A stretch of DNA of 64,000 bases from an uncultured Hungatella sp. Lineage in GTDB: Bacteria > Bacillota > Clostridia > Lachnospirales > Lachnospiraceae. The DNA lies in NCBI GenBank assembly GCA_947066955.1, contig CAMTAF010000002.1:42754-106753 (forward strand), read 5' to 3'. This document shows positions 13,755 through 39,590 of this stretch, piece after piece. Both the position numbers and the translations under genes were made by a program. The notes beneath the pieces were generated by a model, which made no database searches, was not told the origin of the DNA, and saw only the letters and a list, made by a program, of their open reading frames with translations. Numbering within the stretch: position 1 is the stretch's first letter; every line of letters starts with the position of its first letter.

Positions 13755-13766
13755 TTATACGAAATT
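13755..13766 (+). repeat. TTATACGAAATT direct repeat, left of integrase gene (pairs with 15024-15035)
   Basis: Exact 12-mer TTATACGAAATT at 13755 and 15024, same orientation, bracketing the integrase ORF; both are preceded by CAATCT. Confidence 0.6.
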
Positions 13767-13795
13767 ATACAAATTTGATTACCGGTCACGGGATA

Positions 13796-14941
13796 TCACA
13801 AATCTGTCTGCAATTCTTCCAAAGCTCTCAGCACGATCTTCTCGTCGCCCTCAAACATATGACTGTATCTTTTAAAGATGGTTTCCTGAATATCTCCGGA
13901 CACCTTTTCGATCACAGGCAGGGGCACATTTTTTCTGATGAGATTACTGATAAATGTATGACGGAAATCGTGAAGACTGCAGTGCTCGATCCCGGTCTCC
14001 CGGCAGGCCTTGGTGATCAGCATCAGGCAGTTTCCGTAACCATAATCAAAGATCTTGTCCCCCATCTGCCCGCCCCTGTCCAAGTGGGCATCCCGCTCAA
14101 GAATATAAAGGCTTTCCACAATCGGCGTCAAGGGAATGGTCCGCTTCTTAAAATTTTTCGGTTCTTTTATGGTGCCGTCCGCCAGCATGGATTTCGTGAT
14201 TCTCAGGCGCATCCCCTGCTGCTCCTCAAAATCCTGGTAAGTCAATGCCAGGCATTCCCCGATGCGTATCCCTGTATAGTAGAGAACATTGAACATAAAA
14301 CGAAATTTCGGATACCGGTCAACTCCCAGCCGCACAAAGCTGGATGTATGAAAATAATGATCCAGTCTCATCCACTCCTCATGAGTCAGAATCCTGACAT
14401 CATCTGTCTTTTTTGTCTTCACATTGTCTGTTCTGTGGAGGGGATTGTCGTTGATCAGCCTCTTTTTATAAGTCAGGTCAATGAGTTTGCGGAATGTGGC
14501 GTTAATGGAATGGAGGGTTTCCTCTGAATATCCGTGCTCCCGGCAGTCACTGAAAACCTTATAATAAATCTCCTCCGTGATATCCTTGATTCTGGTCTCC
14601 AGGGGAAGGAATTGTCCGATCATGCGAAGCTGCTGTTCCGTATTTTTCACTGTGGTGGGGCTAAAATTCTGAGCCTGGGCTCTGATCTTCCAAAGCTCAT
14701 ACGCTCCCTGGAGGGTGATGTCCTTGTCCTCCATCTTGCCCGCCTCCATCCGCAGCTTCGCCAACTCCTCCTTGGCCTCCGCCAAGGTGGCAATGCTGTA
14801 TTTCCACTTGGCCTTGTATTTGTTCCTCTGCGTCAGCGGGTCATAGATCTTATAATTATACTTCACATCGTACTTTTTCGTGCTCTGATTATAATAAATA
14901 TTCTTGTACTTTGTGGTCACCCTCTTCGCCTGCTCAGCCAT
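13796..14941 (-). CDS. Tyrosine-type site-specific recombinase/integrase
   Basis: N-terminal SAM-like domain (LWKIRAQAQNFSPTTVKNTEQQLRMIGQFLP); catalytic motifs YYTGIRIGECLALTYQDF, HDFRHTFISNLI, ...YSHM. Confidence 0.92.
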   Translation of the reverse strand: MAEQAKRVTTKYKNIYYNQSTKKYDVKYNYKIYDPLTQRNKYKAKWKYSIATLAEAKEELAKLRMEAGKMEDKDITLQGAYELWKIRAQAQNFSPTTVKNTEQQLRMIGQFLPLETRIKDITEEIYYKVFSDCREHGYSEETLHSINATFRKLIDLTYKKRLINDNPLHRTDNVKTKKTDDVRILTHEEWMRLDHYFHTSSFVRLGVDRYPKFRFMFNVLYYTGIRIGECLALTYQDFEEQQGMRLRITKSMLADGTIKEPKNFKKRTIPLTPIVESLYILERDAHLDRGGQMGDKIFDYGYGNCLMLITKACRETGIEHCSLHDFRHTFISNLIRKNVPLPVIEKVSGDIQETIFKRYSHMFEGDEKIVLRALEELQTDL

Positions 14942-14974
14942 AGCCGGTTTCTCCTTTCGTATGCTGTCTTCTTA

Positions 14975-15033
14975 TACGGATCTTTTCTTATTATACTACG
15001 AATCATATACGATCACAATCTATTTATACGAAA
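14975..15033 (+). promoter_or_regulatory. TACGRAT-like motif array, copy 1
   Basis: TACGGAT 14975, TACGAAT 14997, TACGATC 15008, TACGAAA 15027; spacing 22/11/19. Confidence 0.55.
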
Positions 15034-15106
15034 TTCTTATATATTTTTCTCTATAATATCACTGATTTTACAGTATTTATTGTAAAAACTCATTTATATT
15101 AGGAAG

Positions 15107-15123
15107 TATAATTACCTCGTAAT
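15107..15123 (+). promoter_or_regulatory. Conserved -10-like TATAAT plus ATTAC-CTC-GTAAT inverted repeat, copy 1
   Basis: GGAAGTATAATTACCTCGTAATG is identical in all four paralogous leaders, 75-77 bp from the ATG. Confidence 0.6.
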
Positions 15124-15183
15124 GAAACAGGAATTTTCGCAAAAGAAAATCCCAAAAAAAGGAAAAAGGAGAGTGCATTCATT

Positions 15184-16695
15184 ATGAGAAAGCAAACGAA
15201 ATTAGTTGCGGTACTGTCCGCAGCTGCTCTGTTAGCTATCGGCGCTTCCATGACTTCCTTCGCAGCCAGCGGCTGGGCACAGGAAGATGGAACTTGGGTA
15301 TATCTGGATAGCAGCGGGGACAGGGTGTATGACACCTGGAAGAAATCAGGATCCAGCTACTTCTATCTGAATGAGGATGGGGAGATGGCTACCAATGCGA
15401 TCATTGAGGATGGAGATTACAAGTACTATGTAGATGCAAGCGGTGCCAGAGTTACTAACCAGTGGATCTCCATGGAGAACGAAGACGGTGAGACCATCGG
15501 TGACAACGATGATATCTCTACTATTTGGTATTACTTCGGTTCTAACGGAAGAGCCAACAAAGCCACAAACGATACTAACGGAATTAAAACAGTCAATGGT
15601 AAGAAGTATCTTTTTGATGGGGATGGATACATGTTGTCCGGTTGGCAAGAGTATAACGATAAGCTATACTACTTAGGTGATGAGAACGAAGGCTGGGCAT
15701 ATACCGGTTGGCAGTACCTTGAGGTTCCGGAAAATTGGACAATGGCAGACGGTTCAAACTACGATGACGAAGAGTGGTTTTATTTCGATACATCAAATGG
15801 CAAGGCCGCTAAAAATACCAGAAAATATATCAATGGTAAATATTACGTTTTTGATGAAAACGGTGTAATGTTAAATAAGTGGGCGCAAGCCACACCGGCT
15901 GATTCAGATAAGCTGAATAACAGTGCTACACCTTTTGAGGCTCGTTACAAGGAGGATGGTTCCCAAGCAACCGGTTGGATATATGCATATGCGGATAATG
16001 AGGAAGACGGCGACCAGTATTGGTTCTATTTGGACAGTAAAGGTGTTCCGTTTAATCAGAATGGTGCAGATGGAGACGAAAATTCCGTAGCTATTAAGAA
16101 AGATGACGCAAATTGGAAGGATCCAATTTATGGCGTAGCAGCCAAGGTCATTAAGAGCAAAACTTACCTGTTCGATAATGAAGGAAAAATGCAGACTGGT
16201 GTATTTATCTTAAATGGTGTAGTGCGCACTGGAAGTTCTACCAATCTGTCGGGTATCTACTACTTCAACAAAGATAGCGGATCAGGGCAAGGAGCAATGG
16301 CAACCGGCAAAGTTACCGTAAGCTATGACGGCACTAACTATAACTATCATTTCCAGAAAGATGGTTCCGCTTACGCAATGTATATAGTTGATAGTTCTTT
16401 ATATGACGGACGTGGCGAGAGAGTTGATGCTGATGACGGCAATTCTTATACCGTATATGGTCCTGAAAGCGAAGAGGCAGTAATCAAGGTTAAAGACGGT
16501 ACAAAACTTTATGATATAACAGGTTCTCATAAAGTTACGGTCAAAACAGCTCAAGGTTCTTCTACCGTAGAGGGTCCGGCTATGCTGATTGTCAGCTCTG
16601 GCGGCAAAGTTAAGAAATCTGGTACTGTTAAGATTGACGGTATTAAATATACTCTTTCCGGTTATGTTGTTACCCAAGCTGAGTATGTCGATTAA
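15184..16695 (+). CDS. Secreted cell-wall-binding-repeat protein, paralogue 1
   Basis: Signal peptide MRKQTKLVAVLSAAALLAIGASMTSFAA; choline-binding-like GW/YY repeats (GWAQEDGTWVYLDSSGDRVYDTWKKSGSSYFYLNEDGEMAT); shared C-terminal SSGGKVKKSGTVKIDGIKYTLSGYVV. Confidence 0.88.
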   Translation: MRKQTKLVAVLSAAALLAIGASMTSFAASGWAQEDGTWVYLDSSGDRVYDTWKKSGSSYFYLNEDGEMATNAIIEDGDYKYYVDASGARVTNQWISMENEDGETIGDNDDISTIWYYFGSNGRANKATNDTNGIKTVNGKKYLFDGDGYMLSGWQEYNDKLYYLGDENEGWAYTGWQYLEVPENWTMADGSNYDDEEWFYFDTSNGKAAKNTRKYINGKYYVFDENGVMLNKWAQATPADSDKLNNSATPFEARYKEDGSQATGWIYAYADNEEDGDQYWFYLDSKGVPFNQNGADGDENSVAIKKDDANWKDPIYGVAAKVIKSKTYLFDNEGKMQTGVFILNGVVRTGSSTNLSGIYYFNKDSGSGQGAMATGKVTVSYDGTNYNYHFQKDGSAYAMYIVDSSLYDGRGERVDADDGNSYTVYGPESEEAVIKVKDGTKLYDITGSHKVTVKTAQGSSTVEGPAMLIVSSGGKVKKSGTVKIDGIKYTLSGYVVTQAEYVD

Positions 16696-16708
16696 TCATT
16701 AACTGTTA

Positions 16709-16742
16709 GAGGCAGGCGGGTTTATCCTGTCTGCCTTTTCAA
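16709..16742 (+). terminator. Rho-independent terminator
   Basis: GGCAGGCGGG-TTTATC-CTGTCTGCC-TTTTC. Confidence 0.7.
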
Positions 16743-16839
16743 AACTTACATTACCGTTCCTGCTGCCTTATTCGCCAGACCTCTACCCTATTGAGCAATT
16801 CATGTACTTGCTTTGACATCAAATAAAATCGACTGTGAA

Positions 16840-17095
16840 TGGTAACATATTTTATCCACCGTCACCAGACCGCTGCCCTTTTCATATCTTCCAACGCTTT
16901 ACACACAACCAACTTCTCCTCTCCTTCTTTCAACTGCAATTTCACATTAGCGCACTGGTTCAGCATGTCAATCTCATTTCTCTCAGATTCCGAAAATTCT
17001 CGTTCGCTGTTTTATCCAGCATTTCTATATCTTTCGAGTACTTAATAAACGACAGCACATTTCTCGAAGTTGTGTAGAATTTGTTCAATTTCTCG
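16840..17095 (-). pseudogene. Degraded C-terminal cassette of Rpn-like protein (cassette a)
   Basis: Reverse strand retains YTTS..VLSFIKYSKDIEMLDKTANENFRNLRE...VCK-like sequence with frame breaks. Confidence 0.5.
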
Positions 17096-17160
17096 TTAAC
17101 TAATCACCAAATTTGGAAATTTAACCCATCTTTCTCATAAATTCAAACCGTGGTCTTCCT

Positions 17161-17465
17161 TTACAGCATAGATAAAAATCTAGAACTCTCTGATTCCGGT
17201 ATTTTCAATGCCTTCATGGCCTGTTCTGCAGAAACATGGAATGCCTCCATCACATTTTTGATGTCTTCTAAATGCGTAGTTTTTCTTGTCTCCTCCGTTG
17301 CCTTCTGGGTTGCGTCTTGGGCTGCCTTTTTTTCATATCTTCCAACGCTTTGCACACAACCAATTCCTCCTCTCCTTCTTTCAAGCTCAGTTTCGCGTTC
17401 ACGCACTGGTTCAGCACATCAATCTCATTTTTTCTCAGATTTCGGAAATTCTCGTTCACTGTTAT
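17161..17465 (-). pseudogene. C-terminal cassette of Rpn-like protein, frameshifted at A7 (cassette b)
   Basis: Two overlapping frames: NENFRNLRKNEIDVLNQCVNAKLSLKEGEEELVVCKALEDMKK and KKAAQDATQKATEETRKTTHLEDIKNVMEAFHVSAEQAMKALKIPESESSRFLSML. Confidence 0.65.
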
Positions 17466-17598
17466 CAGATTTTAGGAAATCCCAAAAGTTGTAAACTGGT
17501 GTATTTTATTTTTCAAAAGTCAAAAAATTGTAAACTGGTGTCTATCAATTAAATCAGCATTTTATGATTTCAGTATACCAAAGACCGTTGTCCTTATT

Positions 17599-17991
17599 CT
17601 ACAGCATTGATAAAAACTTTGCGAACTCAGATTCTGGTATCTTTAATACGCCCATAGCCTGCTCTGCTGATATATGGAATGATTCCATTACATTTTTTAC
17701 TGCCTGTAAAAGCGTATTTTCAGTCGCTTCCTCAGTCGCTTTTTTTGCCGCTTTTTCTGCTGCCTTTTCTGCCGCTGCCTTTTTCATATCTTCTAACGCT
17801 TTACACACAACCAGCTCCTCCTCTCCTTCTTTCAAACTCAGTTTCGCGTTCACACACTGGTTCAGCACGTCGATCTCATTTTTTCTCAAATTCCGGAAAT
17901 TCCCGTTCACTATTTTATCCAGCATTTCCATATCTTTCGAGTACCTGATAAACGCCAACACCTCTCTCAACGTTGTATAGAATTGATTCAA
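17599..17991 (-). pseudogene. Stand-alone C-terminal cassette of Rpn-like protein with open frame (cassette c)
   Basis: NQFYTTLREVLAFIRYSKDMEMLDKIVNGNFRNLRKNEIDVLNQC...FLSML equals the C-terminal part of the 20476 copy; preceded by TGA TGA. Confidence 0.6.
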
Positions 17992-18080
17992 TTCCTCGTT
18001 GATTCATCAGTAAATTTAAAAATACAAAAAGTGACAGTTACTAAAGATAGGCAGGACTTTTGTTCCTGCCTGTTTTTTAT

Positions 18081-18165
18081 GCGCACGGAGTGGAAAAGAA
18101 ATGTGGCCGCTTGCGCGACTCCGCCCCGGTACGACGAGTAGCGGAAAAACCTCCCCTACTCGATT
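18081..18165 (+). repeat. Palindromic interspersed repeat, family A (degenerate copy)
   Basis: CGCACGGAGTGGAAAAGAAATGTGGCCGCTTGCGCGACTCCGCCCCGG...CGAGTAGCGG...CCCCTACTCG. Confidence 0.65.
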
Positions 18166-18253
18166 ATTCATTCTCATAAGATATTTTACAGCTATACAAT
18201 TCTACCTTTTATAATAACTTGTCGTTTGCACAAGTTCAGACCAAGGGCTTTCT

Positions 18254-18904
18254 TTACAGCATTGATAAAAATCTGGGACTCTCTGATTCCGGTATCTTTA
18301 ATGCCTTCATGGCCTGTTCTGCGGAAACATGGAATGCCTCCATCACATTTTTAATATCTTCTAAATGTGTAGTTTCCGTTGTCTTCTTTTTCATGTCTTC
18401 CAACGCTTTGCACACAACCAATTCCTCCTCTCCTTCTTCCAAGCTCAGTTTCGCATTCACACACTGGTTCAGCACGTCGATCTCATTTTTTCTCAGATTC
18501 CGAAAATTCCCGTTCACTGTTTTATCCAACATTTCCATATCTTTCGAGTACTTGATAAACGCCAACACCTCCCTCAGCGTTGTGTGAAATTTATCCAGTT
18601 CCTCATCAGAAAGACCGGCCGGATTATCAGATGCACCTGATAATCCGGCACCAGAGACAAGAGCCGCCTGTCCGTCATACATGGCCGTCAGGCTTTTCAT
18701 CACGTCTCGGTACTTCTGCTCCGGTTCGCCGGCACTGTCTGCCCCATAGGGAACCGCCAGCTCTGTGACATCCAACGCTTTCAGCTGCTCCGGCCTGATC
18801 ACCTGCTGGCCTCCGAAAATATAGTAATTGAAAGCATCTGCAAATATATTGTTCTGTTCCATGTAAACCTTAGTCACGGTATCTTTGCGGCCCAATCTCC
18901 TCAC
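18254..18904 (-). pseudogene. Rpn-like protein with internal deletion, reading frame kept (cassette d)
   Basis: N-terminus MRRLGRKDTVTKVYMEQNNIFADAFNYYIFGGQQVIRPEQ and C-terminus ...FLSML; core from AYLLLGIENQ to VPDYQVHLIAP missing. Confidence 0.65.
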
Positions 18905-19054
18905 CGCCTTTCCTTTTTTCTTTTAAGAAGCGGCACTCTCTGCTTCGCGAACCCTGCCAGTTCATCGAAAGACATCTTGAAAACGTTTCTCGTTTGCCTT
19001 CCTCTTTTAGACTACATTTTATCAGGTTTTAGGAAATCCCAAAAGTTGTAAACT

Positions 19055-19445
19055 GGTGTATATTTTATCCGCCGTCATAAAGCCGCTGTCTTTCTTCTAT
19101 AGCATTGATAAAAATTTTGCAGACTCAGATTCTGGTATCTTTAATACGTCCATCGCTTGCTCCGCCGATATGTGGAGTGATTCCATCACATTTTTGATGT
19201 TTTTTAAATGCGTAGTTTTCCTTGTCTCCTCCGCTGCCTTTTTTTCATATCTTCCAACGCTTTACACACAGCCAGTTCCTCCTCTCCTTCTTTCAACCAT
19301 AATTTCGCGTTCACGCACTGGTTCAGCACATCGATCTCATTTTTTCTCAGATTCTGGGAATTCTCGTTCACTGTTTTATCCAACATTTCCATATCTTTCG
19401 AGTACTTGATAAACGCCAGCATCTCCCTCAAAGTTGTGTGGAATT
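19055..19445 (-). pseudogene. C-terminal cassette of Rpn-like protein, frameshifted at A7 (cassette e)
   Basis: MREMLAFIKYSKDMEMLDKTVNENSQNLRKNEIDVLNQCVNAKLWLKEGEEELAVCKALEDMKK then a frame change. Confidence 0.6.
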
Positions 19446-19492
19446 AGAATCTTATTTTAACCGGTGGGAGAAAACCTCCTGCTGTCTTTCCT

Positions 19493-20476
19493 CTACAGCA
19501 TTGATAAAAACTTTGCGAAGTCAGATTCTGGTATCTTTAATACGCCCATAGCCTGCTCTGCTGATATATGGAGTGATTCCATTACATTTTTTACTGCCTG
19601 TAAAAGCGTATTTTCAGTCGCTTCCTCAGTCGCTTTTTTTGCCGCCTTTTCCGCTGCCTTTTCTGCCGCTGCCTTTTTCATGTCTTCCAACGCTTTGCAC
19701 ACAACCAATTCCTCCTCTCCTTCTTTCAAGCTCAGTTTCGCGTTCACGCACTGGTTCAGCACGTCGATCTCATTTTTTCTCAGATTTCGGAAATTCCCGT
19801 TCACTGTTTTATCCAACATTTCCATATCTTTCGAGTACTTGATAAACGCCAGCACCTCCCTCAGCGTTGTGTGGAATTTATCCAGTTCCTCATCAGAAAG
19901 ACCGGACGGCGCGATCAGATGCACCTGATAATCCGGCACCAGGGACAAAAGCCTCCTGTCCTTCACGCTCATCATCTCATGCAAGGTCATCGGGCCATCC
20001 CACGGGTCCGGTGAAAAGAAGACTACCAGCGTGATCACCGGGATCAGTTTATCCTCTTTATAAAATCCCGACAAAAATTCTCCCTCATTATGCCCTTTAT
20101 AATCCTTCGCCCCACGATGGCTTGCCGCCGCTTCCTGTACTTGTTTTGCGTAATTCAGCGCATCATACAGTAGGTTCTTCACCGGCATGGCGTAATTCAC
20201 ATCACTCTGGTTTTCAATTCCCAGCAACAAGTATGCCGCCTGTTCATCATACATGGCCGTCAGGCTCTTCATCACATCGCGGTATTTCTGCTCCGGCTCC
20301 CCGGCGCTGTCTGCCCCGTAAGGAACCGCCAACTCTGTGATATCCAACGCTTTCAGCTGCTCCGGCCTGATCACCTGCTGGCCTCCGAAAATATAGTAAT
20401 TGAAAGCATCTGCAAATATATTGTTCTGTTCCATATAGACCTTGGTCACGGTATCTTTGCGGCCCAATCTCCTCAC
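19493..20476 (-). CDS. Rpn/YhgA-like PD-(D/E)XK nuclease (putative recombination-promoting nuclease/transposase family), full length
   Basis: MRRLGRKDTVTKVYMEQNNIFADAFNYYIFGGQQVIRPEQLKALDITELAVPYG...YRDVMKSL...AAYLLLGIENQSDVNYAMPVKNLLYDALNYAKQVQE matches the Lachnospiraceae proteins usually annotated as Rpn family. Confidence 0.72.
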   Translation of the reverse strand: MRRLGRKDTVTKVYMEQNNIFADAFNYYIFGGQQVIRPEQLKALDITELAVPYGADSAGEPEQKYRDVMKSLTAMYDEQAAYLLLGIENQSDVNYAMPVKNLLYDALNYAKQVQEAAASHRGAKDYKGHNEGEFLSGFYKEDKLIPVITLVVFFSPDPWDGPMTLHEMMSVKDRRLLSLVPDYQVHLIAPSGLSDEELDKFHTTLREVLAFIKYSKDMEMLDKTVNGNFRNLRKNEIDVLNQCVNAKLSLKEGEEELVVCKALEDMKKAAAEKAAEKAAKKATEEATENTLLQAVKNVMESLHISAEQAMGVLKIPESDFAKFLSML

Positions 20477-20719
20477 CGCCTTTCCTTTTATTATCGTATG
20501 CTTTGGCAGCCATCACCGTTTTATGTTTCTTCTGAAACGGCTACCAAATCGCTTTTTAAAGTATTGGCACCTTCCGCTTCGCGGATCCTATCAGTACGTC
20601 GGAAGGCAGCCTGAAAACATTTCGCGTTTACCTTTCTCCTTCGAGTTTCTGGCTCCAGTATACCATATTTTATCCCCCTCCACAAGGCCGCCTCTCCAGA
20701 TTTGTATACTCATTATTTA

Positions 20720-20780
20720 TACGGATTCTATCTTTTTAATACTACGAATTGAATACGAATATAACCATATCTATACGATT
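20720..20780 (+). promoter_or_regulatory. TACGRAT-like motif array, copy 2
   Basis: TACGGAT 20720, TACGAAT 20743, TACGAAT 20754, TACGATT 20774; spacing 23/11/20. Confidence 0.55.
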
Positions 20781-20852
20781 TTGTGATTTTATTTCCAAGA
20801 TATTCACTGTATTTATCCATATTTTTCAATAAATTTCCTTTATATTAGGAAG

Positions 20853-20869
20853 TATAATTACCTCGTAAT
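20853..20869 (+). promoter_or_regulatory. Conserved TATAAT plus ATTACCTCGTAAT, copy 2
   Basis: Same element as at 15107, 76 bp from the ATG. Confidence 0.6.
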
Positions 20870-20928
20870 GAAACAGGAATTTTCGTAAAAGAAAATCCAA
20901 AAAAAGGAAAAAGGAGAGTGCATTCATT

Positions 20929-22395
20929 ATGAGAAAGCAAACGAAATTAGTTGCGGTACTGTCCGCAGCTGCTCTGTTAGCTATCGGCGCTTCCATGACT
21001 TCCTTCGCAGCCAGCGGCTGGGCACAGGAAGATGGAACTTGGGTATATCTGGATAGCAGCGGGGACAGGGTGTATGACACCTGGAAGAAATCAGGATCCA
21101 GCTACTTCTATCTGAATGAGGATGGGGAGATGGCTGTGGATACCATTGTCGAGGATGGTGACGACAAATACTATGTGGACGCAAGCGGCGCAAGAGTCTA
21201 CAATCAGTGGGTCTCTATGGATAACGAAGACGACGAGACTGTCGGTGACAATGACGATATCTCTACTCTGTGGTATTACTTCGGCTCCAGCGGAAAGGCC
21301 TACAACGACGCTGTTAAAACTATCAACGGTAAAAAGTATATCTTCGATGACAACGGCTATATGCTGTCCGGCTGGCAGACCTATGGCGAGGATAACGATC
21401 TGTACTACTTAGGCGAGGAGAATGAGGGCTGGGCATACACCGGCTGGCAGTTCCTTGAACTGGATGAGGACATTGAGGACGATGACTATGACGATGAGGA
21501 GTGGTTCTACTTCAAACCGTCAACCGGAAAAGCCTACGTCGGCGAGAGAAAGTATATCAGCGGCAAGTACTACACTTTCGATGAGAACGGCGTAATGCAG
21601 GATAAGTGGGTAGTTGGTACGCCAGGTGCTCCGGCTTCCCAGGACAGTGCCCGTTATAGAGAGGATGCCGGTTCTCAGGAGACTGGCTGGATTTACGCAT
21701 ATCCTGTTGATGATCCCGACGAGGAAGGCGACGATCAGTACTGGTTCTATTTAGACAGCAAGGGGGTTCCTTTCAACCTGAATGGCGCTGATACTCAGTT
21801 TTTACAGTTAAATGACGGTACACGGTATGACATGGCCGAGACTGAGGTACAGAAGAAAGACAACGAAAAGTGGAAAACTCCGATCACCAATGTAGCTGCT
21901 AAGGTCATTAAGAGTAAGACTTATCTGTTCAACGACAAAGGCGAGATGCAGACCGGCGTATTTATCTTCTATGACTATGTAAGCCGTACAGGCGGAGTTG
22001 TTCTTGAGCCAGGCGTCTACTACTTCAGTAAGGAGGGTGGATCCGGTGAGGGCCAGATGCAGACCGGCAAGACCACTGTGAATTATGATGGCGACACCTA
22101 CAACTACTACTTCCAGAAGGATGGTTCTGCTTATTTAGCATACATCGCTGACGGCGCTCTGTACGATGGATATGGCGAGAGAATTGACGCTGAGGATGGT
22201 AATTCTTACGACTTAGTCGATATCGATGCTGGCATTACAATAAGAATTAAGGGGTCCAGCAAAGTTATCGAGGGTCCCGTTACTATGATCGTTAACTCCA
22301 GCGGTAAGGTCAAGAAGTCCGGAACCGTTAAGATTGATGGTTGGAAGTACACGGTTGACGACTATATCGTTACAGGTGTAGAGGCAGTCGATTAA
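20929..22395 (+). CDS. Secreted cell-wall-binding-repeat protein, paralogue 2
   Basis: First ~200 nt identical to paralogue 1; same repeats and C-terminus. Confidence 0.88.
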   Translation: MRKQTKLVAVLSAAALLAIGASMTSFAASGWAQEDGTWVYLDSSGDRVYDTWKKSGSSYFYLNEDGEMAVDTIVEDGDDKYYVDASGARVYNQWVSMDNEDDETVGDNDDISTLWYYFGSSGKAYNDAVKTINGKKYIFDDNGYMLSGWQTYGEDNDLYYLGEENEGWAYTGWQFLELDEDIEDDDYDDEEWFYFKPSTGKAYVGERKYISGKYYTFDENGVMQDKWVVGTPGAPASQDSARYREDAGSQETGWIYAYPVDDPDEEGDDQYWFYLDSKGVPFNLNGADTQFLQLNDGTRYDMAETEVQKKDNEKWKTPITNVAAKVIKSKTYLFNDKGEMQTGVFIFYDYVSRTGGVVLEPGVYYFSKEGGSGEGQMQTGKTTVNYDGDTYNYYFQKDGSAYLAYIADGALYDGYGERIDAEDGNSYDLVDIDAGITIRIKGSSKVIEGPVTMIVNSSGKVKKSGTVKIDGWKYTVDDYIVTGVEAVD

Positions 22396-22417
22396 TCTTT
22401 AGCTTCCAAACCATTAA

Positions 22418-22468
22418 TAAGGCTGTTGCTCCAGTGATGAACATCACATGGGCAGCAGCCCTTTTATT
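22418..22468 (+). terminator. Rho-independent terminator
   Basis: GGCTGTTGCTcc...gGGCAGCAGCC-CTTTT. Confidence 0.65.
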
Positions 22469-22549
22469 GCACGCGTGGCAGAATATATATGCTTCCTGTG
22501 CATCCCTGCCCCGCGCGTGAGCGGGGAAAAGCCTGTTATTCATTCTGTA

Positions 22550-22578
22550 TTGTAAAAATGCCTTGCAAATGATATACT
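22550..22578 (+). promoter_or_regulatory. Sigma-A-like promoter
   Basis: TTGTAA-17-TATACT upstream of the 22610 CDS. Confidence 0.55.
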
Positions 22579-22609
22579 AAAGTTATTCTTTCAGGAAGGA
22601 GGCAGCCCT

Positions 22610-24295
22610 ATGGCAAGAACTGTGGGTCTCGGACATCAGGATTTCGCGCAGCTGATCACCAATGATTATTTTTATATCGACAAAACCAGTTTTATAAAGG
22701 AATGGTGGGAAAACGGAGATATGGTGACCCTGATCACCAAGCCCCGCAGATTCGGCAAAACTCTGACCATGAGCATGACAGAGTATTTCTTCTCTGCAGC
22801 TTGTGCCGGACAGGAGAAGTTATTTCACAACCTTTCTATCTGGAAAGAGGAAAAATACCGGAACCTTCAGGGAACCTTTCCGATGATCAGCCTCTCTTTT
22901 GCAAATGTAAAGGAAAAAGACTACCCTTCCACTATCCTGCGGATCTGCCAGCTGGTGACAGATCTGTATAACAGAAACGCCTTTTTATTACAGAGCAATC
23001 TGCTTTTAGAAGAAGAAAAAGCGGAATACCGAAAAATTTCCATGAACATGCCGGAAGTAGTCGCCACCATGGCGATTCACAAGATGGCAGAATATCTTTC
23101 CCGCTATTACCAGAAAAAAGTGATCATTCTCTTAGATGAGTATGATACGCCGATGCAGGAAGCTTACACCAATGGTTATTGGAACGAACTCTCCGGATTC
23201 ATCCGCAGTATGTTCAATTCCACATTCAAAACCAACCCATATATGGAGCGGGGGATCATGACTGGCATCACCCGTGTAAGCCGGGAATCCATTTTTTCAG
23301 ATTTAAATAATCTGGAAGTAGTAACCGCCACATCAACCAAATATGAAACATCTTTTGGATTTACTCAGGAGGAAGTATCCCAAGCTCTGAGCGAATACGG
23401 CCTGGCCCAAAAAGAGCGTGAAGTGAAGGACTGGTATGACGGTTTTTCTTTTGGAAAGAGAACAGATATTTATAATCCATGGTCGATTCTGAATTATCTG
23501 GACAAGAAAACTTTTTCCGCTTATTGGGCAAATACCAGCAGCAACAGCCTTATAAACCAGCTGATACGGCAGGGCAGTCCGGATATAAAAATTATGGTGG
23601 AAGACCTGATGAAAGGAAGAGCCATCCATGTCCGATTAGATGAGCAGGTAATCTTCGATCAATTAGACCGCAGTGAAAGCGCTATCTGGAGCCTGTTCCT
23701 GGCAAGCGGATATCTGAAAGTAACAGAACTTTCCTTAGATGAAACCAGCGGAAAACAAGAATATTCCCTCGCTTTGACAAACAAAGAGGTTTTTCTCATG
23801 TTTGAAAAAATGATCCAGGACTGGTTCGCGCAGTCCACCCCCTCCTACAATCAATTTATCAAAGCGCTGTTGGCCGGGGATGTCAAGGCGATGAATGTCT
23901 ATATGAATCGGGTCGCTTTGTCTACCTTCAGCTATTTTGACACAGGCAAACGTCCTTCCGATGTGACAGAACCAGAACGTTTTTATCATGGGTTCGTTCT
24001 GGGCCTTATGGTAGACCTGGAAGACCGGTATCTGATCACTTCCAACCGAGAAAGCGGGTTTGGGCGGTACGACTGTGTCCTTGAGCCAAAAAGCCAAAAA
24101 GATGATGCCATCATACTGGAGTTTAAAGTACATGACCCCGATGAAGAACATTCTCTTAGAGATACTGTAGACGCTGCTCTAAAACAGATCAAGGATAAAA
24201 AGTATGCTGCTTCATTACAGCACAAGGGGATTTCCCATGAACGGGTCCGCATGTATGGATTCGCTTTTGAAGGGAAAAAGGTTTTGATTGGATAA
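22610..24295 (+). CDS. AAA-ATPase-like plus PD-(D/E)XK nuclease protein (DUF1703 type)
   Basis: ITNDYFYIDKTSFIKEWWENGDMVTLITKPRRFGKTLTMSM (Walker A-like), VIILLDEYDTPMQEAY (Walker B), C-terminal ESGFGRYDCVLEP...AIILEFKVHD nuclease motif. Confidence 0.85.
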   Translation: MARTVGLGHQDFAQLITNDYFYIDKTSFIKEWWENGDMVTLITKPRRFGKTLTMSMTEYFFSAACAGQEKLFHNLSIWKEEKYRNLQGTFPMISLSFANVKEKDYPSTILRICQLVTDLYNRNAFLLQSNLLLEEEKAEYRKISMNMPEVVATMAIHKMAEYLSRYYQKKVIILLDEYDTPMQEAYTNGYWNELSGFIRSMFNSTFKTNPYMERGIMTGITRVSRESIFSDLNNLEVVTATSTKYETSFGFTQEEVSQALSEYGLAQKEREVKDWYDGFSFGKRTDIYNPWSILNYLDKKTFSAYWANTSSNSLINQLIRQGSPDIKIMVEDLMKGRAIHVRLDEQVIFDQLDRSESAIWSLFLASGYLKVTELSLDETSGKQEYSLALTNKEVFLMFEKMIQDWFAQSTPSYNQFIKALLAGDVKAMNVYMNRVALSTFSYFDTGKRPSDVTEPERFYHGFVLGLMVDLEDRYLITSNRESGFGRYDCVLEPKSQKDDAIILEFKVHDPDEEHSLRDTVDAALKQIKDKKYAASLQHKGISHERVRMYGFAFEGKKVLIG

Positions 24296-24592
24296 AATGA
24301 AGAATTGGGGCCTTATTCTAACAGGCGGGAGAATCCCGCCTGCTGTCTTTTCTGCCGCTGCCTTTTTCATATCTTCTAACGTTTTACACACAACCAGTTC
24401 CTCATCGGAATACTCATTTTTCGTATAACGCACGGTTAATTTTATCTCCCCTAACCCTGTCAAAAAAGAACGGTTCTTCTCCAAAAAATCCAGTACTTCT
24501 CCGCGCCATAGTTCATATTCCTGTGTCAATCTGTCAACATCCATAATTTCATACAACTCATGTCCTTTTTGGATTAGCTCCTTCTCCAACAT
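24215..24592 (-). CDS. Small protein downstream of P-loop ATPase; tail shared with Rpn-like C-terminus
   Basis: Likely start MLEKELIQKGHELYEIMDVDRLTQEYELWRGEVLDFL; contains SDEELVVCKTLEDMKKAAAEK; the final ~35 aa are antisense to the 22610 CDS. Confidence 0.5.
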   Translation of the reverse strand: MLEKELIQKGHELYEIMDVDRLTQEYELWRGEVLDFLEKNRSFLTGLGEIKLTVRYTKNEYSDEELVVCKTLEDMKKAAAEKTAGGILPPVRIRPQFFILSNQNLFPFKSESIHADPFMGNPLVL

Positions 24593-24603
24593 ACCTTTAC
24601 ACC

Positions 24604-25770
24604 TCATTCCATCTCCCATCGCAGATAAAACAGAAATACATTATCTAGAATATGGATGCTTTCATCCTTCCACTCAAGCACTTGATACAGCATCCCCCTG
24701 GTCTCCAAAATCTTCTGCCAGTTTTTCAGTGAATCTCTTACTTTCTGCGTCTTTATCTCCTGAGCGCCAATATTATTTTTGATCCGCTCCATCAACTCTT
24801 CCATGCCAAGTTCTATGATAGGCGGATCATCCGCCATAACCTTTAAAATAAGGCTGTATATATCCCGACTACTCCCATCTATAAGATTGTATCTTAAACG
24901 CTGCTGCCCTCTTGTAGGCGGTCCCTCCTTCAAGACACGCACCACATCTCCATATGGAAGATTTACACAGGTAAATCTACAGCTTTCTTCCGCCATATCA
25001 TCAGTGACTTTCGCGCTTTCCTCTGACAGCAATCCTACATTTAGACAAATCGACTGCATAAGCTGGGGAGAATGAATGCTCTCCTCAGCCATCCTGGATA
25101 TGATCTTGTCATCTACTGCGATCCCCAGTCTGGCGAATCCCATCTCAGCGATTCGCTTCAATTCCTCTTTCTTCCATGGTTCCATCTCAATCACGGAAAT
25201 CCTGCCGGTAAGATCCGGGTTAAGCCGAATAGCATCATCAGAACGATAAGGAAGAGAGATGACAACCGCCTTAAACCCCATCCGAATCGTTTCTTTCAGC
25301 TGACAGGCAATATCATACTGAATCTCCGGCGGTGCATAATGGAAATCATCCAGAACAAAAACTTTTTCATATTTTTTAAAATACTCAATCACTTTATCTT
25401 TAGCGGCAAAATAATTTTTCGTAATAATTGTTGATCTCTTCTGATCTTCAGAAAAGTCGGCGTTTTGCTCGCTGACTGCCGCAGTCATGGAAATCCCAAT
25501 TTTCTTTCCAAGCCCTGACCAAAAATCATGCTCCTTTGAAAAATCATTGCCTGACATGGAAACCATATGTTCTTGCCCAATGACACTTTCGCACAACACA
25601 GTCTTCCCTAGTTTTGAGGGGCCGATGATATAGGTCAGATATCCTTCTACAGAAAGACTCTGTTCCAGACGTTCCTCATAAGTATATCTTGTCCCTTTGG
25701 AACGCCTAGACACATAAGTCATCAGAGGATAAGTTCCAGGTTTGAAAACCTCTGAAAATTTCATTTCCAT
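24604..25770 (-). CDS. P-loop ATPase (STAND/AAA-like), accessory
   Basis: YIIGPSKLGKTVLCE (Walker A), KVFVLDDFHYA (Walker B). Confidence 0.7.
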   Translation of the reverse strand: MEMKFSEVFKPGTYPLMTYVSRRSKGTRYTYEERLEQSLSVEGYLTYIIGPSKLGKTVLCESVIGQEHMVSMSGNDFSKEHDFWSGLGKKIGISMTAAVSEQNADFSEDQKRSTIITKNYFAAKDKVIEYFKKYEKVFVLDDFHYAPPEIQYDIACQLKETIRMGFKAVVISLPYRSDDAIRLNPDLTGRISVIEMEPWKKEELKRIAEMGFARLGIAVDDKIISRMAEESIHSPQLMQSICLNVGLLSEESAKVTDDMAEESCRFTCVNLPYGDVVRVLKEGPPTRGQQRLRYNLIDGSSRDIYSLILKVMADDPPIIELGMEELMERIKNNIGAQEIKTQKVRDSLKNWQKILETRGMLYQVLEWKDESIHILDNVFLFYLRWEME

Positions 25771-25851
25771 CCAATCCCCCTTCCAGTGATCAACTTATTG
25801 ATGAAAATGTATACATATTTTATCCACCGTCACCATGCCGCTGCCTTTATT

Positions 25852-26811
25852 CTATAGCATTGATAAAAATTTTGCAGACTCAGATTCTGGTATCTTTAAT
25901 ACGGCCATCGCCTGCTCCGCGGAAACATGGAATGCCTCCATCACATTTTTAATGTCCTCTAAATGCGTAGCTTTTCTTGTCTCCTCTGTTGCTTTTTGGG
26001 CCGCATTTTTCTTCATATCTTCCAATGCTTTACACACAACCAGTTCCTCCTCTCCTTCTTTCAAGCTCAGTTTCGCATTCACACACTGGTTCAGCACGTC
26101 GATCTCATCTTTTCTCAGATTCCGGAAATTACCGTTCACCGTTTTATCCAACATTTCCATATCCTTCGAGTACTTGATAAATGCCAGCACCTCCCTCAAA
26201 CTTGTGTGGAATTTATCCAGTTCCTTATCAGAAAGACCGGACGGCGCAATCAGATGCACCTGATAATCCGGCACCAGGGACAAAAGCCTCCTGTCCTTCA
26301 CGCTCATCATCTCATGCAAGGTCATCGGGCCATCCCACGGGTCCGGTGAAAAGAAGACTACCAGCGTGATCACCGGGATCAGTTTATCCTCTTTATAAAA
26401 TCCCGACAAAAATTCTCCCTCATTATGCCCTTTATAATCCTTCGCCTCTCGATGGCTTGCCGCTGCTTCCTGTACTTGTCTCGCGTAATTCAGAGCATCA
26501 TACAGCAGGTTTTTTATCGGCATGGCATAATTCACATCACTCTGATTCTCGATCCCCAATAACAAATACGCCGCCTGTTCGTCATACATGGCCGTCAGGC
26601 TCTTCATCACGTCTCGGTATTTCTGCTCCGGTTCGCCGGCGCTGTCTGCCCCATAGGGTACCGCCAGCTCTGTGATATCCAACGCTTTCAGCTGCTCTGG
26701 TCTGATCACCTGCTGGCCTCCGAAAATATAGTAATTGAAAGCATCTGCAAATATATTGTTCTGTTCCATGTAAACCTTAGTCACGGTATCTTTGCGGCCC
26801 AATCCCCTCAC
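25852..26811 (-). CDS. Rpn/YhgA-like nuclease, second full-length copy
   Basis: Nearly identical to 19493..20476 except for the linker after EDMKK (NAAQKATEETRKATHLEDIKNVMEAF). Confidence 0.72.
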   Translation of the reverse strand: MRGLGRKDTVTKVYMEQNNIFADAFNYYIFGGQQVIRPEQLKALDITELAVPYGADSAGEPEQKYRDVMKSLTAMYDEQAAYLLLGIENQSDVNYAMPIKNLLYDALNYARQVQEAAASHREAKDYKGHNEGEFLSGFYKEDKLIPVITLVVFFSPDPWDGPMTLHEMMSVKDRRLLSLVPDYQVHLIAPSGLSDKELDKFHTSLREVLAFIKYSKDMEMLDKTVNGNFRNLRKDEIDVLNQCVNAKLSLKEGEEELVVCKALEDMKKNAAQKATEETRKATHLEDIKNVMEAFHVSAEQAMAVLKIPESESAKFLSML

Positions 26812-26965
26812 CGCCTTTCCTTTTATTATCGTATGCTTTGGCAGCCATCATGTTTTATGTTTTTTCTGCTGCAGCTGTCAAATCGCCTTTGAATCTGGCT
26901 CCAGTATATCATATTTTATCCCCCTCCACAAGGCCGCCTCTCCAGATTTGTATACTCACTATTTA

Positions 26966-27026
26966 TACGGATTTTACCATTTTAATACTACGAATCGAAT
27001 ACGAATATACCCATATCTATACGATT
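26966..27026 (+). promoter_or_regulatory. TACGRAT-like motif array, copy 3
   Basis: TACGGAT 26966, TACGAAT 26989, TACGAAT 27000, TACGATT 27020; spacing 23/11/20. Confidence 0.55.
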
Positions 27027-27097
27027 TTACGTTTTTATTCCCGAAAATTTCACTGTATTTATCTATATTTTCAATCAATCTCCTTTATATTAGGAAG

Positions 27098-27114
27098 TAT
27101 AATTACCTCGTAAT
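27098..27114 (+). promoter_or_regulatory. Conserved TATAAT plus ATTACCTCGTAAT, copy 3
   Basis: Same element, 75 bp from the ATG. Confidence 0.6.
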
Positions 27115-27172
27115 GAAATAGGAATTTTCGGAAACGAGAGTTCAAAAAAGGAAAAAGGAGAGTGCATTCATT

Positions 27173-28624
27173 ATGAGAAAGCAAACGAAATTAGTTGCGG
27201 TACTGTCCGCAGCTGCTCTGTTAGCTATCGGCGCTTCCATGACTTCCTTCGCAGCCAGCGGCTGGGCACAGGAAGATGGAACTTGGGTATATCTGGATAG
27301 CAGCGGGGACAGGGTATATGATACCTGGAAGAAATCAGGATCCAGCTACTTCTATCTGAACGAAGATGGCGAGATGGCTACCAACGCTATCATTGAAGAT
27401 GGCGATACCAAGTATTATGTAGATGCGAGCGGTGCCAGAGTTACCAATCAGTGGATTTCCATGGATAACGAAGACGGCGAGACCATCGGCGACAACGATG
27501 ATATCTCTACCATCTGGTATTACTTCGGAGCCAACGGCAAGGCTAACATGAACGGTGTTAAGACTGTCAACGGCAAGAAGTATATCTTTGACGACAACGG
27601 CTACATGCTGTCTGGCTGGCAGGATTACGATGGCGACAAGTACTATCTGGGCGATGAGAATGAAGGCTGGGCCTACACTGGCTGGCAGTTCCTTGAGGTT
27701 CCGGAAGAGATGGAGAACGACGACTACGACGATGAGGAGTGGTTCTACTTCAAGCCATCAAACGGCAAGGCATATGTAAGCTCCAGAAAGTACATCAGCG
27801 GCAAGTACTACACCTTCGATGAGAACGGTGTAATGCAGGATAAGTGGGTAGTTGGTACACCAGGTGCACCGGCTTCTACAGATTACGCTCGCTACAAAGA
27901 GGATGGTTCTCAGGCAACTGGCTGGATCTACGCATATCCGACAGATGATCCGGATGAGGAAGGTGAGGATCAGTACTGGTACTATCTGGACAGCAAGGGT
28001 GTTCCGTTCAACATCAACGGCGTTGACGGCAATCCGCTTTCCTCTGCTATCAAGAAAGACAATGAGAACTGGAAAGCTCCGATCTACGGTGTAGCTGCTA
28101 AGGTTGTTAAGAGCAAGACCTACCTGTTCAACAACAAGGGCGAGATGCAGACTGGCGTATTCATCCTTGGTCTGGATGATGACGGATATCTGAATCCTGA
28201 TCTGGCTACATGGCGTACAGGCGGATCCAGCGCTCTGATGGGTATCTACTACTTCAACAAGGACAGCGGATCTACTCAGGGTGCTATGGTAACCGGCAAG
28301 GCTACTGTAAACTACGATGGTGACAACTACAACTACTACTTCCAGAAAGACGGTTCCGCTTACACAATGTACATTGCTGACGGCGCTCTGTATGATGGAT
28401 ATGGTGAGAGAGTTGACGCTGAGGATGGCAATTCTTATGACTTAGTTAGCATTGCTGACGGCGCTGTTGTAAGAATTAAGGGATCCAGCAACGTAGTTGA
28501 GGGTCCGGCTACTGTGATCGTTAACTCCAGCGGTAAGGTTAAGAAGTCCGGTACCGTTAAGATTGATGGTTACAAGTACACTGTTAACAACTATGTTGTT
28601 ACTGATGTAGAGGCTGTTGACTAA
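27173..28624 (+). CDS. Secreted cell-wall-binding-repeat protein, paralogue 3
   Basis: Same signal peptide, repeats and C-terminus. Confidence 0.88.
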   Translation: MRKQTKLVAVLSAAALLAIGASMTSFAASGWAQEDGTWVYLDSSGDRVYDTWKKSGSSYFYLNEDGEMATNAIIEDGDTKYYVDASGARVTNQWISMDNEDGETIGDNDDISTIWYYFGANGKANMNGVKTVNGKKYIFDDNGYMLSGWQDYDGDKYYLGDENEGWAYTGWQFLEVPEEMENDDYDDEEWFYFKPSNGKAYVSSRKYISGKYYTFDENGVMQDKWVVGTPGAPASTDYARYKEDGSQATGWIYAYPTDDPDEEGEDQYWYYLDSKGVPFNINGVDGNPLSSAIKKDNENWKAPIYGVAAKVVKSKTYLFNNKGEMQTGVFILGLDDDGYLNPDLATWRTGGSSALMGIYYFNKDSGSTQGAMVTGKATVNYDGDNYNYYFQKDGSAYTMYIADGALYDGYGERVDAEDGNSYDLVSIADGAVVRIKGSSNVVEGPATVIVNSSGKVKKSGTVKIDGYKYTVNNYVVTDVEAVD

Positions 28625-28682: not shown

Positions 28683-28684
28683 TG

Positions 28685-32799: not shown

Positions 32800-34314
32800 T
32801 TAATCAGCGTTCTCTTCTTTGGTAATACGATAATTATCAACAGTATATTTAATACCATCAATCTTAACGGTACCTGCTTTCTTTACTTTACCGCTGGAGT
32901 TGACAATTACACGCTCATCAAGAGATAAGGTAGCATTTTTATCGCCTTTAATGTTTACCACTGTATCGCTATCAAAAGCAGCAATTCTGCTAAGTTCGAT
33001 GACTTCATAAGTATTGCCGTCCTCAGCGTCGACTCTCTCGCCAAATCCATCATACAGGATACCATCTGCGATATACATTCTGTAGGCGCTTCCGTCTTTC
33101 TGGAAATAATAATTATATGTGTCACCATCATAGACTACAGAGGTTTTGCCCTTTGCCATAGCGCCTTGGCCGGATCCGCTGTCCTTATTAAAGTAGTAAA
33201 CACCACCATCAAGATAAGCGCCACCAGTGCGGCTTACAGGTGCATAGAAAATAAATACACCAGTCTGCATCTCACCCTTGTTGTTAAATAAATAAGTTTT
33301 ACTCTTAATTACCTTGGTAGCTACACCAGTTAAAGTGTCTTTTTTCCAGGTCTCATTGTCTTTCTTGCGAATCTCTGTCTCAGCCATATCATATATTGGC
33401 TGATTATTTTTGTCTACGAGAATTTGTGTGTGAGAGCCATTTAAGTTAAAAGGAACACCCTTGCTGTCTAAGTAGTACCAATACTGATCTTCACCTTCTT
33501 CATCTGGATCATTAATCGGATAAGCATATACCCAGCCACTTTCTTGGGCACCATTATCAGCTTTATAACGAGCACTCTCATCAGTACTGATATCAATGTT
33601 AGTCGGTGTTCCTAATACCCACTTATCCTGCATTACACCATACTCATCAAATGCATAGTATTTACCACTGATGTATTTTCTGTCGTTTTTATATGCTTTA
33701 CCATTTGATGGTTTGAAATAGTACCACTCTTCATCATCATAGTCGTCGTTATCCTCAAGTTCTTCTTGTACTTCAAGATACTGCCAACCAGTATAGGCCC
33801 AGCCTTCGTTCTCATCGCCAAAGTAATACCATTCATCACCATAATTTTGCCAACCAGAACACATATAGCCGTTGTCATCGAACAAATATTTCTTGCCATT
33901 AACAGTCTTAACACCGTTAGTACCATTTGTATCTCTGTTGGCTTTGCCATTGGAACCAAAGTAATACCAAATAGTGGAGATATCATCATTTCCGCCGATT
34001 TCTTCATCTTCCTCATTATCAACGGAAATCCACTGATTGGTAACTCTCGCACCACTTGCATCTACATAGTACTTGTCGTCTCCATCCTCAATGATCGCGT
34101 TGGTAGCCATCTCACCATCTTCATTCAGATAGAAGTAACCAGATCCTGATTTTTTCCAGGTATCATATACCCTGTCCCCGCTGCTATCCAAATATACCCA
34201 TGTTCCATCCTCCTGTGTCCAGCCCTTAGCAGCTGCGAAGGAAGTCATGGAAGCGCCGATAGCCAACAGAGCAGCTGCAGACAGTACCGCAACTAATTTC
34301 GTTTGCTTTCTCAT
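32800..34314 (-). CDS. Secreted cell-wall-binding-repeat protein, paralogue 4 (inverted)
   Basis: MRKQTKLVAVLSAAALLAIGASMTSFAAAKGWTQEDGTWVYLDSSGDRVYDTWKK; same C-terminus. Confidence 0.88.
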   Translation of the reverse strand: MRKQTKLVAVLSAAALLAIGASMTSFAAAKGWTQEDGTWVYLDSSGDRVYDTWKKSGSGYFYLNEDGEMATNAIIEDGDDKYYVDASGARVTNQWISVDNEEDEEIGGNDDISTIWYYFGSNGKANRDTNGTNGVKTVNGKKYLFDDNGYMCSGWQNYGDEWYYFGDENEGWAYTGWQYLEVQEELEDNDDYDDEEWYYFKPSNGKAYKNDRKYISGKYYAFDEYGVMQDKWVLGTPTNIDISTDESARYKADNGAQESGWVYAYPINDPDEEGEDQYWYYLDSKGVPFNLNGSHTQILVDKNNQPIYDMAETEIRKKDNETWKKDTLTGVATKVIKSKTYLFNNKGEMQTGVFIFYAPVSRTGGAYLDGGVYYFNKDSGSGQGAMAKGKTSVVYDGDTYNYYFQKDGSAYRMYIADGILYDGFGERVDAEDGNTYEVIELSRIAAFDSDTVVNIKGDKNATLSLDERVIVNSSGKVKKAGTVKIDGIKYTVDNYRITKEENAD

Positions 34315-34374
34315 AATGAATGCACTCTCCTTTTTCCTTTTTTTGAACTCTCGTTTCCGAAAATTCCTTTTTGC

Positions 34375-34391
34375 ATTACGAGGTAATTATA
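34375..34391 (-). promoter_or_regulatory. Conserved TATAAT plus ATTACCTCGTAAT, copy 4
   Basis: Reverse strand GGAAGTATAATTACCTCGTAATG, 77 bp from the ATG; the TACGAAT array is not present upstream. Confidence 0.6.
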
Positions 34392-39568: not shown

Positions 39569-39590
39569 GTATGTCTCCTCCTAGTATATA

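What the first reader, a model, noticed from the sequence alone, without database searches (positions are those of the whole stretch)
13755..28624. Amplified [Rpn-like nuclease]-[motif array]-[cell-wall-binding protein] module next to a tyrosine recombinase
Seen directly: two near-identical divergent modules (Rpn 19493-20476 / surface protein 20929; Rpn 25852-26811 / surface protein 27173) plus a first unit in which the integrase (13796-14941) holds the divergent position beside surface protein 15184. Each unit shares the intergenic block, promoter, leader and ~200 nt of 5' coding sequence, then diverges. Inference: a diversification cassette in which long identical 5' segments, and possibly site-specific recombination, reshuffle surface proteins, with the nuclease family hitchhiking or contributing. 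I know of no named system with this composition.
Basis: partly seen in the sequence, partly recalled or inferred. Interest (0 to 1): 0.72.

Follow-up and report, generated by a model that had tools for sequence, protein, structure and literature searches.

The report
Switchable surface-protein genes sharing one promoter
A gut bacterium and its relatives carry one expressed and several promoter-less copies of a choline-binding surface protein, and comparison of sister species shows that the coding sequences move between the expressed and the silent positions, which points to an undescribed antigenic-variation system.

Summary
The window is from a Hungatella-related Lachnospiraceae genome and holds four choline-binding protein (CBP) genes: A, B, C (+) and D (34314, −).

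D, outside the reported coordinates, is the only copy with a full promoter (−35 TTGATA, 17-bp spacer, TATAAT). It lies divergent from a choline-phosphate activation gene (LicCA-like). A, B and C share the −10, 5'UTR and signal-peptide block but lack a −35.

The same rule holds in 20 genomes of the genus. Every TTGATA site is LicCA-adjacent (20/20); none of the other 55 leader sites is. Leaders are about 98-100% identical within a genome but only 73-82% between genomes. Copies often form convergent pairs.

Two sister-genus genomes show the exchange. The expressed coding sequence of one is silent in the other (93% identity), and the reverse also occurs (76%); other pairs are 39-54%.

The "motif array" is the attachment-arm region of the adjacent integrase. 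It recurs upstream of prophage relatives of that integrase. Rpn is a local passenger.

Best reading: an expression-site/silent-copy surface-antigen switch resembling Lactobacillus acidophilus slpA/slpB, with more copies. The recombining enzyme is unknown, and switching in living cells is untested.

The parts
32800..34314 (-). CBP D: choline-binding repeat surface protein at the expression site (predicted expressed copy)
   Evidence: PF19127/PF19085/PF01473; only copy with -35 TTGATA
34386..34414 (-). Expression-site promoter: -35 TTGATA (34409-34414), 17-bp spacer ATTTCCATATTAGGAAG (34392-34408), -10 TATAAT (34386-34391)
34345..34367 (-). 5'UTR hairpin of D (GGAATTTTCGGAAACGAGAGTTC)
   Evidence: hairpin at the same place in the folded UTRs of 18 genomes, with different sequences
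34707..36578 (+). LicCA-like fusion: HTH + nucleotidyltransferase + choline kinase; conserved divergent neighbour of the expression site
   Evidence: PF00483, PF01633, PF01636, PF13412; adjacent to 21 of 21 active sites
15184..16695 (+). CBP A, silent copy (no -35)
20929..22395 (+). CBP B, silent copy (no -35)
27173..28624 (+). CBP C, silent copy (no -35); convergent with D across two wzy-like genes; leader is a mosaic of B-like and D-like tracts
15091..15390 (+). Leader repeat of A: right half of spacer, -10 (15107-15112), 5'UTR hairpin (15130-15152), RBS, signal peptide, first repeat
20836..21135 (+). Leader repeat of B: -10 at 20853-20858, hairpin 20876-20898
27081..27315 (+). Leader repeat of C: -10 at 27098-27103, hairpin 27121-27143
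13796..14941 (-). Orphan tyrosine recombinase related to prophage integrases; under purifying selection (dN 0.087, dS 1.70 against G016)
14955..15033 (.). Array A: integrase arm-type motifs (ATACGAAT-like), between int and CBP A
20700..20780 (.). Array B: copy of the integrase arm region without an integrase gene; same motif spacing (-23/0/+11/+31) as prophage relatives
26946..27026 (.). Array C: as B; no motif base differs from B
13757..13774 (.). Two ATACGAAT-like motifs 3' of int, also present in G016
19493..20476 (-). Rpn-like ORF (PF04754, below cut-off), duplicated together with array and CBP
25852..26811 (-). Rpn-like ORF, second copy

Best explanation
A surface-antigen switching locus. 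One orthologous expression site, with a complete sigma-70-type promoter and divergent from the LicCA-like gene, drives whichever choline-binding protein gene lies behind it; in the window that is D. Further complete copies (A, B, C) share the leader block from the promoter spacer through the signal peptide, but have no -35, so they are predicted silent. Recombination between oppositely oriented leaders (inversion), plus conversion inside the leader, places a silent coding sequence behind the fixed -35 and keeps leaders identical within a genome. The products are predicted to be anchored by choline-binding repeats to the phosphocholine-decorated polysaccharide that the surrounding genes (sugar transferase, glycosyltransferases, Wzy-like, LicCA-like) would make. 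Shown by comparison: one promoter per genome, concerted evolution of the leader, and exchange of coding sequences between active and silent sites in sister species. Inferred: that A-C are not transcribed, that inversion is the physical route, that it happens within clonal populations, and that the benefit is immune or phage evasion. The enzyme is unresolved: RecA-type homologous recombination in the 60-240 nt leader repeats, or a trans-acting site-specific recombinase at the conserved spacer ATTTCCATTATAGGAAG. The adjacent integrase and its arrays are a lineage-specific addition and Rpn is a passenger.
For: (1) Of 76 leader sites in 24 genomes, 20 have -35 TTGATA, one per genome in 20 genomes. 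All 20 have LicCA divergent 300-600 nt upstream; the only other LicCA-adjacent site, G017, has TTGCTA. None of the other 55 sites has TTGATA or LicCA. Active sites share an A-rich upstream stretch (...AAAAA[A/G]GTA), silent sites have unrelated upstream sequence. (2) Median identity for -100..-1 and for codons 1-28 is 98% and 100% within genomes, against 73% and 82% between genomes; beyond nt 800 it is 59% against 41%. The 5'UTR hairpin is kept in different genomes with different sequences, yet is nearly the same in all copies of one genome. (3) Sister-genus genomes G071 (one 6.93-Mb contig) and G704 have the same layout. The active CDS of G071 is 93% identical to a silent CDS of G704, and the silent Wzy-side CDS of G071 is 76% identical to the active CDS of G704; all other pairs are 39-54%. 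One inversion between the outer leaders of G071 would put its fourth CDS at the active site, as seen in G704. (4) On contigs with two or more CBP genes, 17 of 23 adjacent pairs are convergent, so leaders form inverted repeats. In G071 every exact shared block starts at -89/-90, at the junction of -35 and spacer. (5) The 17-bp spacer, normally unconstrained, is identical in 56 of 76 sites, and is degenerate in G017, where only one CBP copy was found. (6) In the window, C's leader is a mosaic: B-like array, D-like UTR, A/B-like signal peptide, then D-like bases.
Against: No reads or clonal isolates were available, so switching in real time is not shown. Silence of A-C rests on the missing -35; a promoter in the arrays is not excluded. 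In this genome D is less homogenised with A-C (93% in codons 1-28, 66-nt exact block) than A-C are with each other, so exchange with D is not very recent here. The ortholog swap rests on one species pair, and G704 is fragmented. Convergent pairs are over-sampled because contigs break at leaders (40 of 76 sites lie at contig ends). No general recombinase was found next to the clusters.
Confidence: 0.77

Rival explanations
1. The coding sequences are moved by gene conversion or RecA-dependent recombination only, on evolutionary time scales. The family is a slowly evolving multigene family under concerted evolution, not a phase or antigenic switch.
For: Homogenised leaders, including UTR and signal peptide, need exchange inside the block, which pure site-specific inversion at the spacer would not give. 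C has a mosaic leader.
Against: A single -35 per genome in 20 genomes with otherwise intact ORFs, convergent pairing and whole-CDS exchange between active and silent positions fit a switch better than neutral family evolution.
Confidence: 0.2
2. Static tandem duplication: the three units arose by unequal duplication, and identical 5' ends reflect recent origin or purifying selection on signal peptide and RBS.
For: B and C share a continuous 2.9-kb Rpn-array-CBP segment, so part of the window does come from duplication.
Against: Leader identity of 96-100% beside 57-80% downstream in the same genes, leader UTR sequences that are genome-specific, and the ortholog swap.
Confidence: 0.07
3. The adjacent integrase is the dedicated recombinase of this locus in the window lineage: it acts on the arrays upstream of A, B and C to excise, duplicate or rearrange array-CBP cassettes, integron-like.
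For: The integrase is conserved in place in G016 with dN/dS about 0.05. Motif arrays sit only upstream of A, B, C and of integrases of this family. Motif spacing -22/-23, 0, +11, +30/31 is kept in B and C as in prophage relatives, and no B/C difference falls in a motif (P 0.014).
Against: The expressed copy D has no array. 22 genomes have the leader system without this integrase. In relatives these motifs look like arm-type sites, not crossover cores. The B/C test is weak (6 differences).
Confidence: 0.2
4. Xer recombination at a dif-like site in the spacer (revcomp ACTTCCTATAATGGAAATTAT resembles the left arm of Firmicutes dif as I remember it).
For: Spacer conserved beyond promoter need.
Against: No chromosomal dif with matching arms was found in the genus, and control patterns hit about as often as real ones. 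The right arm is missing at most silent sites.
Confidence: 0.1

Closest known systems
Lactobacillus acidophilus slpA/slpB S-layer switch (Boot et al. 1996, cited in PMC7858073 and PMC6015585)
   Same: One expression site; the silent gene lacks a promoter; chromosomal inversion places the silent gene at the slp expression site (PMC7858073, PMC6015585). The identical 5' regions and opposite orientation there are from my own knowledge.
   Different: Here 2 to at least 12 leader sites in most genomes instead of two genes; choline-binding repeat proteins instead of S-layer proteins; site tied to a phosphocholine-polysaccharide locus; different bacterial class; inversion not yet shown in culture.
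Campylobacter fetus sap S-layer system (from general knowledge)
   Same: Gene family with conserved 5' ends, a single promoter, silent copies, recombination between 5' repeats.
   Different: There the promoter segment inverts; here -35 and upstream region are fixed next to LicCA and the coding segments would move.
R64-type shufflon (Rci)
   Same: Segments with two convergent alternative reading frames between inverted repeats.
   Different: Whole genes with leader, not C-terminal parts; no dedicated recombinase gene seen beside the clusters in most genomes.
Mycoplasma agalactiae vpma (Xer1) (PMC2268961)
   Same: Surface-protein family switched by recombination.
   Different: No linked Xer1-like gene in general; mechanism untested here.
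Phage integrases of lysS-associated prophages (L034, L035, G241)
   Same: Integrase 50-62% identical with the same upstream motif array and spacing.
   Different: In the window and in G016 the integrase stands alone beside a CBP gene, with no phage genes found around it.

Membership tests
slpA/slpB-type expression-site switch | Only one copy has a complete promoter; others lack it | tested here: met
   20 TTGATA sites, one per genome, all LicCA-adjacent; 0 of the other 55
slpA/slpB-type expression-site switch | Active and silent genes share an identical 5' block and lie in opposite orientation | tested here: met
   Leader 98-100% within genomes; convergent pairs; window C(+)/D(-), where exact identity is only 64 nt
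slpA/slpB-type expression-site switch | Coding sequences exchange between sites | tested here: met
   G071/G704 ortholog swap, 93% and 76%; in the window's own genus the species were too divergent to test
slpA/slpB-type expression-site switch | Inversion observed in a clonal culture | not testable with these tools
   No reads or multiple strains available
Shufflon | Dedicated Rci-like recombinase beside the array | tested here: not met
   Flanks of 22 leader contigs: no ORF matching this integrase and none recognised by eye as a recombinase; the flank ORFs were not profile-searched
Silent-cassette gene conversion (vls, pilE type) | Silent cassettes are partial genes without start codon | tested here: not met
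   A, B, C and other silent copies are complete ORFs with RBS and start
Tyrosine recombinase | Catalytic domain and residues R, K, HxxR, Y | tested here: met
   PF00589 E 7e-15; R225, K249, H323, R326, Y358 invariant in the three-sequence alignment
Rpn recombination-promoting nuclease | PF04754 profile above cut-off | tested here: not met
   17.9 and 18.8 bits against 21; no NCBIfam match
Choline-binding proteins | Several choline-binding repeats above cut-off | tested here: met
   PF19127 in A, B, C and D, E 1e-17 or better

The most novel reading that the evidence does not exclude
In the window lineage a stranded phage integrase has been domesticated: its arm-site region was duplicated in front of silent surface-protein genes, and the integrase now moves array-CBP cassettes in an integron-like way, on top of a switch present in two genera that uses the promoter spacer as its recombination site.
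Probability: 0.15. Interest if true: 0.8.

Novelty: new variant of a known kind. Interest (0 to 1): 0.64.

Why it matters
If true, two genera of gut Lachnospiraceae (including Hungatella relatives) have a programmed way to change a choline-anchored surface protein, coupled in position to the genes that put phosphocholine on the cell surface. My paper searches found no description. It gives a simple rule (the copy behind AAAAA[A/G]GTATTGATA next to licCA is the expressed one) that can be tested in existing long-read and RNA-seq data, and it explains why assemblies of these genomes break at these genes.

Tried and rejected
Rpn as a working part: rejected as general, because Rpn-CBP proximity was seen only in this genome. 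Integrase as the general invertase: rejected, found in 2 of 26 genus genomes. Array as regulator or promoter of CBPs in general: rejected, since the exact pattern occurs only three times in the own genome, once in G016 and otherwise upstream of related integrases. Chromosomal dif / Xer link: patterns gave no conserved dif, and controls hit about as often. Viral contigs: integrase search found one remote hit only; the nine array-pattern matches were not analysed. Phages and plasmids: only about 25% identity relatives. Swap test inside the window's genus: species too divergent, only G000 C with G016 A reciprocal at 60%.
Full report
OBSERVATION. A fourth paralogue, D, lies at 32800-34314(-). The own genome has no other copy above 45% identity. 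Self-comparison gives 88.7% for the two Rpn segments and 80% for array plus CBP of B and C, so the modules are similar rather than near-identical. The leader is much more alike than the rest: A/B are exact over 239 nt (-32 to +207), A/C and B/C over 172 nt, D with the others over 64-66 nt. Downstream identity falls to 57-80%.

CONTEXT. The locus is a polysaccharide cluster: sugar transferase (PF02397), glycosyltransferases, two Wzy_C-type proteins and, divergent from D, a fusion of HTH, nucleotidyltransferase and choline kinase (34707-36578). I call it LicCA-like; choline incorporation is inferred from these domains. The surface proteins carry choline-binding repeats, so they are predicted to bind the product of their own locus.

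THE EXPRESSION SITE. Lined up on the -10, the four leaders show that only D has a -35 (TTGATA, 17-bp spacer, TATAAT); A, B and C have AAAAAC, TAAATT and TCAATC there. I collected leader sites from the genus and tabulated 76 of them in 24 genomes. Twenty have TTGATA, exactly one in each of 20 genomes, and all twenty have the LicCA-like gene divergent 300-600 nt upstream. One more LicCA-adjacent site (G017) has TTGCTA. None of the remaining 55 has TTGATA or a LicCA neighbour (two are cut at the -35 by a contig end). The active sites share an A-rich upstream stretch; the silent ones have unrelated upstream sequences. The shared block begins inside the promoter, at the spacer.

CONCERTED EVOLUTION. 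Within genomes the median identity is 98% for -100..-1 and 100% for codons 1-28; between genomes it is 73% and 82%. Beyond nt 800 the figures are 59% and 41%. The 5'UTR hairpin sits at the same place in the 18 genomes folded but with different sequences, while copies within one genome carry nearly the same version. In the window, C is a mosaic: B-like array, D-like UTR, A/B-like signal peptide, D-like bases around +140. Exchange inside the leader is therefore a property of the family. In this genome D is less homogenised with A-C than A-C are with one another, so exchange with D is older here.

EXCHANGE BETWEEN ACTIVE AND SILENT SITES. A family-wide pattern search found the site in two genomes of a sister genus. 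G071 is one 6.93-Mb contig. Its order is LicCA, active copy 1 (+), copy 2 (-), an AAA-type gene, copy 3 (+), copy 4 (-), Wzy-like gene, sugar transferase. G704 has the same two anchors. Copy 1 of G071, active, is 93% identical beyond residue 40 to a silent copy of G704; copy 4 of G071, silent at the Wzy anchor, is 76% identical to the active copy of G704; every other pair is 39-54%. A single inversion between the outer leaders of G071 would make copy 4 the active one; more than one event is needed for the rest. In these genomes a small difference just before the start codon (GCATTTTTATG or GCATTAATTATG) stays with its coding sequence, so the exchanges that separate these orthologues lie upstream of it.

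GEOMETRY. Seventeen of 23 adjacent CBP pairs on shared contigs are convergent with leaders outside, as needed for inversion. This is biased, because contigs break at leaders: 40 of 76 sites are at contig ends. When leader sites alone are counted, 8 neighbours are convergent, 7 divergent and 6 tandem, i.e. mostly alternating. In the window C and D are convergent across two wzy-like genes, and A and B point the same way as C.

THE ARRAY AND THE INTEGRASE. The motif (TACTACGAATNNNATACGA) occurs three times in the own genome, before A, B and C, and once in G016. The array also lies directly upstream of the related integrases checked in L034/L035 (prophage at the end of lysS), G241 (lysS again) and G368; G299 has ATACGAAT-like motifs but not this exact core. 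Spacing -22/-23, 0, +11, +30/31 is kept in most, and in B and C although no integrase is there. It is thus most likely the arm region and promoter of the integrase. The integrase sits at the same place in G016 (86% identity), with dN 0.087 and dS 1.70, so it is maintained. No base of a motif differs between B and C (P 0.014, six differences). A role in this lineage is possible, but it cannot be the general switch, since 22 genomes with the leader have no such integrase.

RPN. The profile match is below cut-off. Rpn-CBP proximity was seen only in this genome. Truncated and internally deleted Rpn copies lie at 16870-19445. Rpn is best seen as a passenger of the B/C duplication. AAA-ATPase/PDDEXK-type genes recur beside silent copies in several genomes; whether that is more than chance was not tested.

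MECHANISM. Shown by comparison: one promoter per genome, homogenised leaders, exchange of coding sequences between sites. Inferred: silence of A-C, inversion as the route, switching within clones, selective benefit. The enzyme is open. UTR homogenisation argues for homologous recombination in the repeats. The invariance of the promoter spacer (56 of 76 identical), and its decay in G017, where only one CBP copy was found (genome about 79% complete), argue for a specific site. A dif-like reading found no support.

NOVELTY. The closest system I know is the slpA/slpB switch of Lactobacillus acidophilus, in which inversion puts the silent gene at the slp expression site (PMC7858073, PMC6015585 citing Boot 1996). 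The present system works like it by anatomy, with more copies, another protein class and another locus type. My literature searches found no report in these bacteria, but the library is not complete.

Noticed in passing
window 16870-19445: Tandem remnants of Rpn-like genes, mostly C-terminal parts; ORF 18254-18904(-) joins residues 2-83 to 190-319 in frame.
   Followed up: partly
window 28655-28864; also 18049-18164, 46510-46621, 52868-52985: Interspersed GC-rich repeat family (CGGGGCGGAAAGGAAATGTGGCCGC...).
   Followed up: no
window 22610-24295; L104, L110, L120, L117, L175, L179: AAA-ATPase_like + PDDEXK_9-type genes recur beside silent CBP copies in several genomes.
   Followed up: partly
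L034 and L035 near 9780-9850: The integrase relative lies beside lysS in L034; in L035 the left flank differs up to the lysS end, suggesting another attachment state of the same element.
   Followed up: no
window 39579-39706 and 61959-62111: Tandem repeats of 59 bp (2.2 copies) and of 33 bp inside a coding frame (4.6 copies).
   Followed up: no
G006 C44:43761-43979: Inverted pair of TTCCTATAATCCCAATTAT about 200 bp apart, not among the CBP leader sites.
   Followed up: no
genus-wide leader sites: Besides the LicCA site, many genomes have one site with NCGATA at a second recurring flank (Wzy-like, greA-like or a 563-aa protein), probably the far anchor of the variable region.
   Followed up: partly
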